This document shows, one piece after another, positions 5,112 to 25,487 of a DNA stretch of 64,000 nt (positions are counted from its first letter, which is position 1; every line of letters begins with the position of its first letter). The DNA lies in the NCBI GenBank assembly GCA_021650895.1, contig CP091278.1:248001-312000 (forward strand), written 5' to 3'. The stretch comes from Candidatus Jettenia sp. GTDB lineage: Bacteria > Planctomycetota > Brocadiia > Brocadiales > Brocadiaceae. The position numbers and the translations under genes were made by a program. The notes beneath the pieces were generated by a model, which had not been told where the DNA came from, searched no databases, and saw only the letters and a program-made list of their open reading frames with translations.

Positions 5112-7496
5112 ATGATGCACAGAGAGATAATAAAGCGTTATTTTATGTTTTTCCAAATGTTTCGAATACTGGTTATTTTCGTATCTTTCCTCATATGCAT
5201 GAGCTGCCAAAAAACAAAAAAGGAAACACACCCTCAGGCATCAATGAGCGCACACTACGTCGGTAGAGAGGCATGCAAGCCGTGCCATGAAAATATCTAT
5301 GCACAATATACCGGTTCTGATCACGACCTTGCAATGGATTATGCTGTCGATGCGACTGTGTTCGGGGATTTCAACAATACTTCGTTCAATCATCATGATG
5401 TGACTTCGAAGTTTTATAAAAGAGATGGCAAGTTTTTTGTTTTCACCGAAGGTTTTAGAGGTAAATTCCAGGAGTTTGCCATTAAATACACCTTCGGTGT
5501 GCGGCCTTTGCAGCAGTATCTGGTTGAATTTCCCGATGGGCGTGTGCAGACTCTGCCTCTGTGCTGGGATACGAGACCGAAAGAGCAAGGCGGCCAGCGC
5601 TGGTTTCACATCTACGGCAACGAGCGTATTCCGCCAGGTGATATTCTCTACTGGACAAGAATTTCACAGAACTGGAACTATATGTGTGCTGAGTGCCATT
5701 CCACTAACCTGAAAAAAAACTACGATGCAGCCACAGACCGATACAACACTACGTGGTCTGAGATTGATGTATCATGCGAGGCATGTCACGGCCCTGGCTC
5801 GCTGCACGTTGAATGGGCGGAGGCAGAGGCAAGAGGTGAGGATACACAAGACTACACTGACATGGGCCTGTCCATCCGCTTGAAGGATGACAATGACGAA
5901 GAGGTAACCTGGTTGCTCGACAAAAAGCTATCCACTTATAAGCCAAGTACTCCACAGCGCAGACAAAAAGAGGTTGAGATGTGTGCCCGATGTCACAGTC
6001 GCCGGGGGGTTATTAGTGAGGACTATGTTTACGGAAGACCGTTACTTGACACCCATTACCCGCAAGTGCTGGAAGCAAATCTTTACTATCCGGACGGACA
6101 GATTCGTGATGAGGTCTATGAGTATGGCTCATTTTTACAAAGCAAGATGTATCAGGCCGGCATTGTTTGCACGGATTGTCATGACCCACACAGTACCCGT
6201 CGCCGGAAAGAGGGTAATGAATTATGCTACTCGTGTCATCAAACAGAGAAATATGGTTCCCGCGAGCACCATTTTCATAAGATGGGTTCATCAGGCTCGC
6301 AGTGTGTCGAATGTCATATGCCGGCCCGCACTTACATGGTCGTCGATACGCGCCGGGATCACAGCTTTCGTGTTCCGCGTCCTGACTTATCGAAGAAACT
6401 GGGTGTGCCAAATGCCTGCAACGATTGCCATGCGGATAAGTCAACGGAATGGGCATCAGAACATTTTGGGAAGTGGTACGGGACTCCAAAGTCGGGAAAG
6501 CATTACGGTGAGATTTTTTGGGCTGCCAGTCGCTGTATTCCGGGTACCGATGGCGATCTCATTCGTTTGGCTGAAGATAATCAACGATCACCGATAGTGC
6601 GTGCCACAGCGATATTTTTGCTGCGGAACTATCCCTCCGAAGCATCGTTAGAAACCCTTAGGAAAATGCTGCAAGATGCCAATCCGCTCGTTCGTTCTGA
6701 AGCCGTTACCTCTTTGGACATCTTGCCGCCGGAGGGTCGGGCACAGTACCTGCTGCCGATGTTACATGATCCGGTACGACTGGTGCGTACATTTGCTGCA
6801 CGATCTTTAGCGTCGATCCCGACAAATTTGCTGTCAGAAGCGACGTTAAAGCAACGCGAGGCTGCCATCAAAGAATATGAAGAAACACAGATGCTCAATG
6901 CTGATTATCCTGCGGCACACATAAATCTGGGGAATCTCTACCTCGACCGTGGCGAGTATGACCGTGCCGCAGCTTCATATAAGAAAGCCGTCGAGATCGA
7001 ACCGGTCTTTATCCCCGGATATATTAACCTTGCAGATGTTTATCGCGTTCAGAACCAGGATGAAAAAGGAAGAAATGTCTTAGAGCAAGCATTGTACCTC
7101 GCACCAAAATCTGCGCCGATACATCATGCTCTAGGCCTGTTGATGATTCGCACCGGTGAGCACAAGAAAGCCTTACACCATTTGCGCAAGGCTGCAATAC
7201 GTGCCCCGGAGAATACACGATACAGTTATGTGTATGGGATAGCACTGGATTCACAAAAGATGCCAGAACAGGCGATATCGGTTCTCAAGAAGGCCTTAAA
7301 CCATAACCCATATGATCCTGATTTGCTGGTTTCTCTAACTATGATTTATCGTGACAGAGGCGAGTTTGGACAGGCGTTAAAGTATGCTGCCAGATTAGCC
7401 AAGAACTATCCTGAGAACCAGGATTATCAGCAATTGGAAAAGCATTTAATAATCTTAGCTGACCGGCAGGAAGAAAAACCTGATAGACGAGACTAA
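5112..7496 (+). CDS. Eight-heme cytochrome c fused to HEAT and TPR repeats
   Basis: A 794-residue exported protein. A hydrophobic N-terminus ends in LICMSC, which resembles a lipobox, so it may be a lipoprotein. Eight CxxCH heme sites lie at about residues 55, 192, 222, 291, 353, 372, 398 and 436. Residues about 480-580 look like HEAT-type helical repeats, and about 590-785 hold several TPR repeats (NADYPAAHINLGNLYLDRGE and following). Multiheme-TPR fusions of this kind occur in planctomycetes and deltaproteobacteria; the hemes would carry or accept electrons outside the cytoplasm and the repeats would bind partners. Position 5112 lies at the edge of a repeat and has no ribosome site, so Met12 (5145) or Met16 (5157) may be the real start. 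The exact redox partner is unknown. Confidence 0.85.
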   Translation: MMHREIIKRYFMFFQMFRILVIFVSFLICMSCQKTKKETHPQASMSAHYVGREACKPCHENIYAQYTGSDHDLAMDYAVDATVFGDFNNTSFNHHDVTSKFYKRDGKFFVFTEGFRGKFQEFAIKYTFGVRPLQQYLVEFPDGRVQTLPLCWDTRPKEQGGQRWFHIYGNERIPPGDILYWTRISQNWNYMCAECHSTNLKKNYDAATDRYNTTWSEIDVSCEACHGPGSLHVEWAEAEARGEDTQDYTDMGLSIRLKDDNDEEVTWLLDKKLSTYKPSTPQRRQKEVEMCARCHSRRGVISEDYVYGRPLLDTHYPQVLEANLYYPDGQIRDEVYEYGSFLQSKMYQAGIVCTDCHDPHSTRRRKEGNELCYSCHQTEKYGSREHHFHKMGSSGSQCVECHMPARTYMVVDTRRDHSFRVPRPDLSKKLGVPNACNDCHADKSTEWASEHFGKWYGTPKSGKHYGEIFWAASRCIPGTDGDLIRLAEDNQRSPIVRATAIFLLRNYPSEASLETLRKMLQDANPLVRSEAVTSLDILPPEGRAQYLLPMLHDPVRLVRTFAARSLASIPTNLLSEATLKQREAAIKEYEETQMLNADYPAAHINLGNLYLDRGEYDRAAASYKKAVEIEPVFIPGYINLADVYRVQNQDEKGRNVLEQALYLAPKSAPIHHALGLLMIRTGEHKKALHHLRKAAIRAPENTRYSYVYGIALDSQKMPEQAISVLKKALNHNPYDPDLLVSLTMIYRDRGEFGQALKYAARLAKNYPENQDYQQLEKHLIILADRQEEKPDRRD

Positions 7497-23789: not shown

Positions 23790-24058
23790 ATTTGAGGTAT
23801 TTTAATGTTTAGGAATTTCGAAGTCTAGTGTAAATGATCTAAGGATTATGATATCTTTCGATAGTTCCTTCAAAAATACTTCCTTTTGTTGTAAAATTAG
23901 CGGATATAATGCAGATATAATTAGGTAATAATCTATCCTGTAATCTGGTATACTATTTCTATAGTCTCTAGCATAAAGATTATAATGCAGGCGAGGTAAC
24001 ACTTGCGAAAAGTTTTGCAAGATAATAATAGTAATCTGGTATTTTACGGAGGAGAAAA
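23790..24058. other. Intergenic region upstream of the octaheme gene
   Basis: No gene. The 12-mer GTAATCTGGTAT occurs at 23940-23951 and again at 24031-24042, 91 bases apart. CTTGCGAAAAGTTTTGCAAG near 24003 is a weak hairpin. A GGAGGAG ribosome site sits six bases before the ATG at 24059. Confidence 0.4.
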
Positions 24059-25402
24059 ATGATGATCTATCTCTTACAATTCAGAGTTAAATCTGTAGGA
24101 CTTCTTGCATTCGTTGTTTCTTTTACCGGACTATTCTGGTTTACGGGTTGTACAACGCAAAAGGAGATAGTAACTACTTCCCATTCTCATAAAGAAGCAG
24201 CTCCTGAGCCGGTTGTAACAATGAAGATTGAACGGGGAATTACAGATGAGTCCTTAAGATGCATAACATGCCATGAGGAGCGAGGTGTAACCCACGGCTG
24301 GGTTGCTGATTGGGAGGCTAGCGCACATGCCAGGAATGGTGTGGGATGTGAGGCATGCCATATTAACCCTGAGAGAGAACCATGGATACAAGAGGCCGTT
24401 GAACTGGAATATCTCCGGACCGATAGAAGTAATTGTGATGATAAGAGGGTGCATCTCCAGGTTATTGCCGGCAACTGTGGAAAATGTCATACCAAACAGT
24501 ACAAAGAATTCATGAAGAGCCGCCATTCCATTGGCTGGAAGAGAATGTTAGAATATGGTCACGATACGGGGCTTTCCAAAGATATCCGTCTAGCCAGATG
24601 CGAACAGTGCCATAATATTCAATTTAAATGTGATTCGTGCCACACCAGACATACCTTTAGTGCCCTTGAGGCAAAAACTCCTGAGGTCTGCCGGACGTGT
24701 CATACGGGGCAGGACCATCCTCATTATGATATGTACATTTCTTCTAAACACGGGACCGTATATACTGCAACTCAAACCAGTATATTAAAAGAATCTCGAT
24801 CAATCAAGGCATTACGTGCGCCAGTGTGTATTACCTGTCATATGCCCGAGGGCAATCATGATATCAGTTTTGGACTTGCCTATGCACCGGTAGGAGGCGG
24901 CTTATCTTATAGTAACCGGGAAGGTATTCCTGTCGACAAAAACGAGTTGACGAAAAGACGCAGTGATATGTTGTCTGTTTGCAATACCTGTCATTCACCG
25001 AGTTTTGCTGAGAAAACATTAACGAAGGCTGACACCGTTCATGAGAAGGTAAATGCCGTTATGGATGAGGCAAAGAATACTATTTTTGAATTGGAGAAAG
25101 AGGGCCTTATCTATTTATCGGATATTAAGAACGCCAAGACGATTGATACCACATCTCCTGTTCATGCCCTTATTCTTGGGTCTCCACAATTATATGGTGG
25201 ATCAAGAATAGAGCGTTTATTTCTCGATATAATTTGTAATGCCGCTGTTGCCTCGAAAGGGGCATACCACGTGAATCCCAATTATACATACCTGTATGGG
25301 CTTGCAGAGATGCAAAAAGGTATGAGCGATATGAAAGAAGAGGCAAAGAAACTACGGGAAGAAGCAGAGTTCAAGAGAAAGATGGGTAGTAAATTGAGAT
25401 AA
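24059..25402 (+). CDS. Octaheme cytochrome c, HAO-family-like, predicted lipoprotein
   Basis: A 447-residue multiheme protein. The N-terminal helix ends FWFTGC, a plausible lipobox with Cys31, so it is probably anchored to a membrane by lipid. Eight CxxCH sites lie at about residues 68, 97, 140, 181, 191, 211, 257 and 308. The spacing, with the close pair at 181 and 191 and the sequence TGQDHPHYDMYISSKHG after the sixth, matches the hydroxylamine oxidoreductase (octaheme HAO) family. After the last heme is a helical tail; NPNYTYLYG near residue 404 lies roughly where HAO carries the Tyr that crosslinks to heme P460, but I cannot tell if it is equivalent. Many HAO-like proteins in anammox bacteria oxidise or reduce hydroxylamine, hydrazine or nitrite. 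The reaction here is unknown. The strong GGAGGAG ribosome site fixes the start. Confidence 0.85.
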   Translation: MMIYLLQFRVKSVGLLAFVVSFTGLFWFTGCTTQKEIVTTSHSHKEAAPEPVVTMKIERGITDESLRCITCHEERGVTHGWVADWEASAHARNGVGCEACHINPEREPWIQEAVELEYLRTDRSNCDDKRVHLQVIAGNCGKCHTKQYKEFMKSRHSIGWKRMLEYGHDTGLSKDIRLARCEQCHNIQFKCDSCHTRHTFSALEAKTPEVCRTCHTGQDHPHYDMYISSKHGTVYTATQTSILKESRSIKALRAPVCITCHMPEGNHDISFGLAYAPVGGGLSYSNREGIPVDKNELTKRRSDMLSVCNTCHSPSFAEKTLTKADTVHEKVNAVMDEAKNTIFELEKEGLIYLSDIKNAKTIDTTSPVHALILGSPQLYGGSRIERLFLDIICNAAVASKGAYHVNPNYTYLYGLAEMQKGMSDMKEEAKKLREEAEFKRKMGSKLR

Positions 25403-25403
25403 A

Positions 25404-25487
25404 TGCCGAAGAGGGGAGTTGAACCCCTACAGTGTTGCCACTACTAGACCCTGAATCTAGCGCGTCTGCCAATTCCGCCACTTCGGC
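25404..25487 (-). tRNA. tRNA-Leu (CAG)
   Basis: Reading the minus strand gives an 84-nt cloverleaf: acceptor arm GCCGAAG/CTTCGGC, a D arm with GGCGGAATTGGCAGACGC, an anticodon stem CTAGA/TCTAG with loop TTCAGGG (anticodon CAG), a long variable arm (TAGTGGCAACACT) typical of class II tRNAs, and a T arm with GGTTCAA. No CCA is encoded. It follows the octaheme gene's stop by one base on the opposite strand. Confidence 0.95.

What the first reader, a model, noticed from the sequence alone, without database searches (positions are those of the whole stretch)
24059..25402. HAO-family octaheme protein predicted to be a lipoprotein
Eight CxxCH sites with HAO-like spacing and a FTGC lipobox. HAO enzymes are usually soluble, so a lipid-anchored form could be an electron-transfer or membrane-bound branch. 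The gene is alone, with no obvious redox partner next to it.
Basis: partly seen in the sequence, partly recalled or inferred. Interest (0 to 1): 0.6.

Follow-up and report, generated by a model that had tools for sequence, protein, structure and literature searches.

The report
Membrane-anchored eight-heme HAO relative
An anammox bacterium (a Jettenia) carries a conserved eight-heme relative of hydroxylamine oxidoreductase that appears tied to a membrane by a lipid; its active-site loop looks more like the reducing than the oxidising enzymes, so the single tyrosine often used to call such proteins 'oxidising' is probably misleading here.

Summary
ORF 24059-25402 (+, 447 aa) has eight CxxCH motifs and an HAO fold (Pfam PF13447; only HAO-family structures match with confidence). 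The genome is an anammox planctomycete, genus Jettenia. The gene belongs to the lineage of Kuenenia kuste2457, most probably 'HAO6' of the literature: one copy in most Brocadiaceae, none found in the other families of the order, outside the clade that holds HOX, HDH, HAOr and Nitrosomonas HAO. The lipoprotein reading is well supported: the lipobox Cys is invariant in 26/26 orthologues, ends the hydrophobic core, and LspA is encoded. The Tyr test gives a surprise. A Tyr (Y411) aligns with the P460 crosslinking Tyr, but at His+7 on a loop one residue shorter than in every Tyr-bearing relative of the HAO/HOX/HDH clade (all His+8), and the site is His, Asn or Phe in 18/26 orthologues. The distal active-site His is also replaced in 12/26. 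I read it as a membrane-anchored, reductive-type octaheme (N-oxide reduction and electron transfer), not a P460 oxidase. It stands alone here, but in another Jettenia and in relatives a cytochrome b-like protein and an 11-heme cytochrome lie directly upstream. Lineage known; lipid anchor and loop spacing not found described in the library searched.

The parts
24059..25402 (+). octaheme HAO-fold cytochrome c, kuste2457/HAO6 lineage, 447 aa, predicted lipoprotein
24048..24052 (+). ribosome binding site GGAGG, 6 nt before the ATG
   Evidence: read directly
24059..24148 (+). type II signal peptide (residues 1-30: basic residues R9 and K11, then a hydrophobic core up to WFTG)
24149..24151 (+). lipobox Cys31, predicted lipid attachment site, invariant in 26 of 26 orthologues
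24260..24274 (+). heme 1 motif CITCH (residues 68-72)
24434..24436 (+). Cys126, an extra non-heme Cys, invariant in the 26 orthologues and not seen at this place in the other rows of alignment A1
24599..24613 (+). heme 4 motif CEQCH (residues 181-185), counterpart of the catalytic heme of HAO
   Evidence: position of heme 4 by homology to NeHAO
24713..24718 (+). Asp219-His220, counterpart of the active-site Asp-His of HAO (Asp267-His268 of NeHAO, numbering from general knowledge); His220 is Q/N/I/S in 12 of 26 orthologues
25268..25291 (+). His404 ... Tyr411: loop HVNPNYTY with Tyr at His+7 (P460-type HAOs: Tyr at His+8)
25404..25487 (-). tRNA-Leu (CAG) on the opposite strand directly downstream; the gene is monocistronic
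23790..24058 (.). upstream intergenic region; in a second Jettenia (L129) this site holds a cytochrome b-like gene and an undecaheme cytochrome gene, with flanks shared with the window

Best explanation
The gene encodes the kuste2457-type (HAO6) octaheme cytochrome of the anammox family Brocadiaceae: an HAO-fold protein exported, cut by signal peptidase II and held by a lipid at its N-terminus on the outer (periplasm-like or anammoxosome-lumen) face of a membrane. It most likely works in the reducing direction: electrons from the membrane, directly or through other cytochromes, run along bis-His hemes to an open heme 4, where a small N-oxide (nitrite, NO or hydroxylamine) is reduced, as detoxification or an electron sink; in lineages with a degraded active site it may serve only as an electron relay. 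Shown here: octaheme HAO fold, lineage, conserved lipobox Cys, reductive-type loop spacing, variable Tyr and distal His, patchy upstream cyt b/11-heme cassette in relatives. Inferred: actual lipidation, which membrane, direction, substrate, oligomeric state.
For: HAO fold and eight hemes. In the 81-row tree it lies in a clade of 26 (SH-aLRT 100), apart from the clade that holds NeHAO, KsHOX and KsHAOr. Lipobox Cys in 26/26 orthologues, no Cys at that column in the non-anammox relatives examined; LspA encoded. Loop after the invariant His404: the orthologues have the short form (G at His+10 in 24/26) shared with HAOr (lacks the Tyr; PMC9530715) and the Tyr-less non-anammox relatives, whereas all P460-type rows have Tyr at His+8. 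Tyr411 is Y 8, H 14, N 3, F 1, at least 4 changes on a tree built without that column. Best structural match is the reducing complex Kustc0457/0458, though by a small margin. Upstream cytochrome b-like plus 11-heme cytochrome in relatives, one copy decaying, suggests an electron supply from the membrane.
Against: Y411, D219 and H220 are all present in Jettenia, so this orthologue could be an oxidase; PMC12758564 predicts that HAO6 turned oxidative in some Brocadiaceae. No activity, localisation or proteomic data. The cassette is absent from this genome, so no electron route is shown. -3 of the lipobox is Phe and no Lys/Arg lies in the first seven residues. The AlphaFold model is of moderate confidence, without heme or trimer.
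Confidence: 0.55

Rival explanations
1. A true P460-type oxidative HAO: the Tyr of one subunit crosslinks to heme 4 of its neighbour in a trimer, and the enzyme oxidises hydroxylamine or hydrazine at the membrane.
For: phmmer places Y411 on Tyr467 of NeHAO with the motif YTY beside WTY, and D219-H220 are intact; PMC12758564 infers a His to Tyr change in HAO6 of some Brocadiaceae.
Against: Tyr is at His+7 on a loop one residue shorter than in every Tyr-bearing row of the P460 clade (His+8). The column is H/N/F in 18 of 26 orthologues and changes at least 4 times. Two Desulfobacterota relatives also show Tyr in an otherwise Leu/Phe/Thr column.
Confidence: 0.15
2. An electron-relay lipoprotein with a largely decommissioned active site: the eight hemes serve as a membrane-tethered wire and catalysis is vestigial.
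For: Heme motifs and the other invariant His residues are kept, while the distal His is Q/N/I/S in 12 of 26 orthologues and the Tyr column drifts. An 11-heme cytochrome sits upstream in some relatives.
Against: Asp219 is invariant in all 26 and His220 is kept in Jettenia; dN/dS 0.18-0.20. Another paralogue with E-Q in this place (L003, L056, L100) is itself well conserved, so loss of the His need not mean loss of catalysis.
Confidence: 0.22
3. Not a lipoprotein: the signal is cut by signal peptidase I, or kept as an uncleaved N-terminal membrane helix; the conserved Cys has another role.
For: Lipobox-like matches also occur in the signal peptides of HDH and HOX of the same family, and HDH is described as soluble (PMC12758564). 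Strict lipobox form fulfilled in only 15 of 26.
Against: Here the Cys ends the hydrophobic core and a polar linker follows at once, with no A-x-A site nearby, whereas HDH continues to a clear AKA site. 26/26 conservation in an otherwise divergent leader. LspA present.
Confidence: 0.12

Closest known systems
kuste2457 of Kuenenia stuttgartiensis / HAO6 clade of Okubo et al. 2021 as used in PMC12758564
   Same: The only hit of the orthologous clade in a complete Kuenenia genome (G020, whose HOX branches at distance 0 from 4n4j) is 433 aa, the stated length of kuste2457 (PMC3482989). PMC3655542 says Scalindua lacks kuste2457, and PMC12758564 says HAO6 is absent there and varies His/Tyr at the crosslink site in some Brocadiaceae; both fit.
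   Different: Only 38% identity to the Kuenenia protein. Assignment to HAO6 rests on distribution and the His/Tyr pattern, not on a published accession. Lipobox and loop spacing not found described in the held papers.
HAOr, Kustc0458 with Kustc0457 (PDB 6h5l), nitrite-reducing, no Tyr crosslink
   Same: Short loop after the last conserved His with G at His+10; Asp-His at heme 4; best structural match.
   Different: HAOr has WWW where the window protein has YLY; no lipobox in its Jettenia orthologue; different clade.
HOX (kustc1061, 4n4j), HDH (6hif) and NeHAO (1fgj/4fas)
   Same: Octaheme HAO fold, Asp-His at heme 4, a Tyr near the crosslink column.
   Different: Tyr at His+8 on a loop one residue longer; separate, well-supported clade.
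Tyr-less octaheme HAO-like proteins of Ignavibacteria, Desulfobacterota, Bipolaricaulota and others
   Same: Same loop length and HxNPxYxx-YG motif; about 30% identity.
   Different: No lipobox Cys, no Cys126, separate clade.

Membership tests
HAO family (octaheme cytochrome c, HAO fold) | eight CxxCH motifs and match to the family profile or fold | tested here: met
HAO family (octaheme cytochrome c, HAO fold) | heme 4 with a free distal side and an Asp-His pair beside it | tested here: met
   D219-H220 align with DH of NeHAO and KsHOX; the free distal side is inferred from homology
P460-type oxidative HAO (HAO, HOX, HDH) | crosslinking Tyr at the right place | tested here: inconclusive
   Tyr at the aligned column, but His+7 instead of His+8 and not conserved in orthologues
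P460-type oxidative HAO (HAO, HOX, HDH) | phylogenetic place inside the P460 clade | tested here: not met
   separate clade with SH-aLRT 100; quick tree, some long branches
P460-type oxidative HAO (HAO, HOX, HDH) | P460 chromophore and hydroxylamine or hydrazine oxidation | not testable with these tools
   needs purified protein
kuste2457 / HAO6 lineage | monophyly with the 433-aa Kuenenia protein | tested here: met
kuste2457 / HAO6 lineage | restricted to Brocadiaceae, absent from Scalindua | tested here: met
   27 of 33 family genomes, 0 of 29 other genomes of the order (families bear codes, not names)
bacterial lipoprotein | lipobox Cys at the end of the hydrophobic core of a signal peptide | tested here: met
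   Cys31 in 26/26 orthologues; looser core pattern 21/26, strict 15/26; the window passes the looser core only
bacterial lipoprotein | signal peptidase II encoded in the genome | tested here: met
   PF01252 over its cut-off at G000:C1:834240-834653
bacterial lipoprotein | lipid actually attached | not testable with these tools
   needs mass spectrometry or membrane proteomics

The most novel reading that the evidence does not exclude
A second, independent origin of the Tyr-heme (P460) crosslink, on a loop one residue shorter, in a lipid-anchored octaheme enzyme that oxidises hydroxylamine or hydrazine at the membrane of Jettenia and a few relatives, while its own orthologues with His or Asn remain reductases.
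Probability: 0.12. Interest if true: 0.7.

Novelty: new variant of a known kind. Interest (0 to 1): 0.4.

Why it matters
HAO-type enzymes carry out several key steps of anammox, and direction of reaction is commonly assigned from one tyrosine. This lineage shows natural Y/H/N/F variation at that site on a short loop, so it is a ready test of whether the Tyr alone makes an oxidase, and of whether anammox bacteria have a lipid-anchored octaheme at a membrane besides the Rieske-bound Kuste4574.

Tried and rejected
Tyr presence as a direct call of 'oxidising': rejected after the spacing and variability checks. Lipobox pattern alone as proof: rejected as weak because HDH and HOX signals also match. 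Coupling between Tyr411 and the distal His: none seen (Y occurs with H, Q and N at 220). Conserved operon partner: none across the lineage; neighbours differ (CDF/smpB in Jettenia and g11, a cyclase-family gene in Kuenenia, others in Brocadia). Remnants of the upstream cassette in the window: none found, only shared flanks. The first HAO6 tree included an unrelated row by a naming slip and was rebuilt without it, with the same counts at 411. Ferousi 2021 and Okubo 2021 could not be read. The EET paper PMC7188810 names no such protein in the passages read.

Full report
OBSERVATION. The reading frame lies exactly at 24059-25402 on the + strand: GGAGG, six bases, ATG, 447 codons, eight CxxCH motifs. 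Pfam gives PF13447 at E 2.5e-29, and phmmer finds the solved HAO-family enzymes. The AlphaFold model (35-row alignment, mean pLDDT 64, pTM 0.62) matches only HAO-family structures at E<=1e-3 (6h5l, 6t5e, 4n4j, 1fgj, 6hif, 4qo5), with NrfA far behind. Three Jettenia orthologues give dN/dS 0.18-0.20, so the gene is under purifying selection.

GENOME AND LINEAGE. The window lies in a 3.82-Mb single-contig genome whose nearest named relative is Ca. Jettenia ecosi (94% for this protein). A search with this protein gives 12 matches in the genome, itself included, most of them HAO paralogues or other multiheme proteins. In a tree of 81 sequences the query sits in a fully supported clade of 26, separate from the clade containing NeHAO, KsHOX and KsHAOr and from the octaheme proteins of Ignavibacteria, Desulfobacterota and others (quick method, with long-branch warnings). 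In the complete Kuenenia genome G020, whose HOX branches at distance 0 from 4n4j, the orthologue is 433 aa, the published length of kuste2457 (PMC3482989). Orthologues at E<=1e-55 occur in 27 of 33 family genomes and in none of 29 other genomes of the order. This fits the statement that Scalindua lacks kuste2457 (PMC3655542) and the description of HAO6 in PMC12758564. The HAO6 name is therefore probable but not proven.

LIPID ANCHOR. Cys31 closes the hydrophobic core (LLAFVVSFTGLFWFTG-C) and a polar linker follows at once. The Cys is invariant in 26 of 26 orthologues, although the leader sequences otherwise vary and the protein identities run down to 36%; the looser lipobox core is met by 21 and the strict form by 15. 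The window's own -3 residue is Phe; its Jettenia ecosi orthologue has Leu. Signal peptidase II is encoded. A control matters: HDH, described as soluble in PMC12758564, and Kuenenia HOX also carry lipobox-like matches inside their signals, so the pattern alone proves little; in HDH, however, the leader runs on to an AKA site, which has no counterpart here. Which membrane is anchored is not known.

THE TYROSINE. phmmer sets Y411 on the crosslinking Tyr467 of NeHAO (numbering of the latter from general knowledge, consistent with the chain position). Counting from the invariant His404, however, every Tyr-bearing row of the P460 clade has Tyr at +8: NeHAO, KsHOX, HDH and the other paralogues of that clade. 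The query has it at +7, with G at +10, the loop length of HAOr (WWW, no Tyr) and of the non-anammox relatives. Among the 26 orthologues the site is H 14, Y 8, N 3, F 1 and changes at least four times between Tyr and not-Tyr on a tree built without that column. The distal active-site His (H220) is H 14, Q 6, N 4, I 1, S 1, while Asp219 is invariant. The two sites do not change together. The published inference that HAO6 became oxidative in some Brocadiaceae (PMC12758564) rests on the residue at the aligned column, so the spacing is a reason for caution; it does not exclude a crosslink.

HEME LIGANDS. Apart from the eight CxxCH His, seven His are invariant in the 26 orthologues (H90, H156, H198, H231, H267, H369, H404), which is the number needed for seven bis-His hemes and one open heme (the assignment is inference, and H369 is not shared by the wider family). 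Cys126 and Asp128 are invariant in the orthologues, and Cys126 has no counterpart in the other rows of A1; its role is unknown.

SURROUNDINGS. The gene is monocistronic in the window: cation efflux gene (-) before it, tRNA-Leu (-) after it, then smpB, a response regulator, an S13 carboxypeptidase and a methyltransferase. This order is kept in Jettenia ecosi and in genus g11. In another Jettenia (G016) and in g11 genomes G027 and G030 a cytochrome b561-like membrane protein (PF01292, below its cut-off) and an 11-heme cytochrome lie between the efflux gene and the HAO gene, on the same strand as the HAO gene; in G032 the first gene is broken; in genome G011 of genus g3 the pair lies about 67 kb away. 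Neither is found in this genome. The window shares both flanks of the site with G016, so the pair was either lost here or gained there. Kuenenia instead has a cyclase-family gene next to the HAO gene.

INTERPRETATION. Best reading: a lipid-anchored octaheme that reduces N-oxides or relays electrons at a membrane. Reductive direction is inferred from loop type, tree position outside the P460 clade, variable Tyr, and a membrane cytochrome b/11-heme pair beside it in some relatives. Substrate, direction, lipidation and membrane remain untested. NOVELTY. The lineage is known as one of about ten HAO paralogues; the lipid anchor and the loop spacing were not found in the held literature, which lacks most subscription journals.

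Noticed in passing
L129:4620-6262; L019:4231-5839; L031:4156-5831: Cassette of a cytochrome b561-like membrane protein and an 11-heme cytochrome, present in only 4-5 of 33 Brocadiaceae genomes and mostly directly upstream of the HAO6 gene; one copy (G032) is broken by a stop.
   Followed up: partly
window 24434-24436: Non-heme Cys126 (with Asp128) invariant in all 26 orthologues of this lineage and absent from the other HAO rows of the alignment; possible heme ligand or disulfide partner.
   Followed up: partly
L003, L056, L100: Another anammox HAO paralogue has Glu-Gln in place of the active-site Asp-His while keeping the Tyr at His+8.
   Followed up: no
window 5112-7496 (+): 794-aa protein with eight CxxCH motifs, HEAT and TPR repeats and a lipobox-like ICMSC near the N-terminus; not an HAO.
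   Followed up: partly
L025:6001-7365: The orthologue in isolate H5_AMX3 has Ser in place of the first Cys of heme motif 1 (SITCH), leaving seven regular CxxCH.
   Followed up: no
L007, L008: Two near-identical HDH genes at distant places in the window's genome (identical over the kept tree columns); the Kuenenia genome G020 also has two (L108, L111).
   Followed up: no
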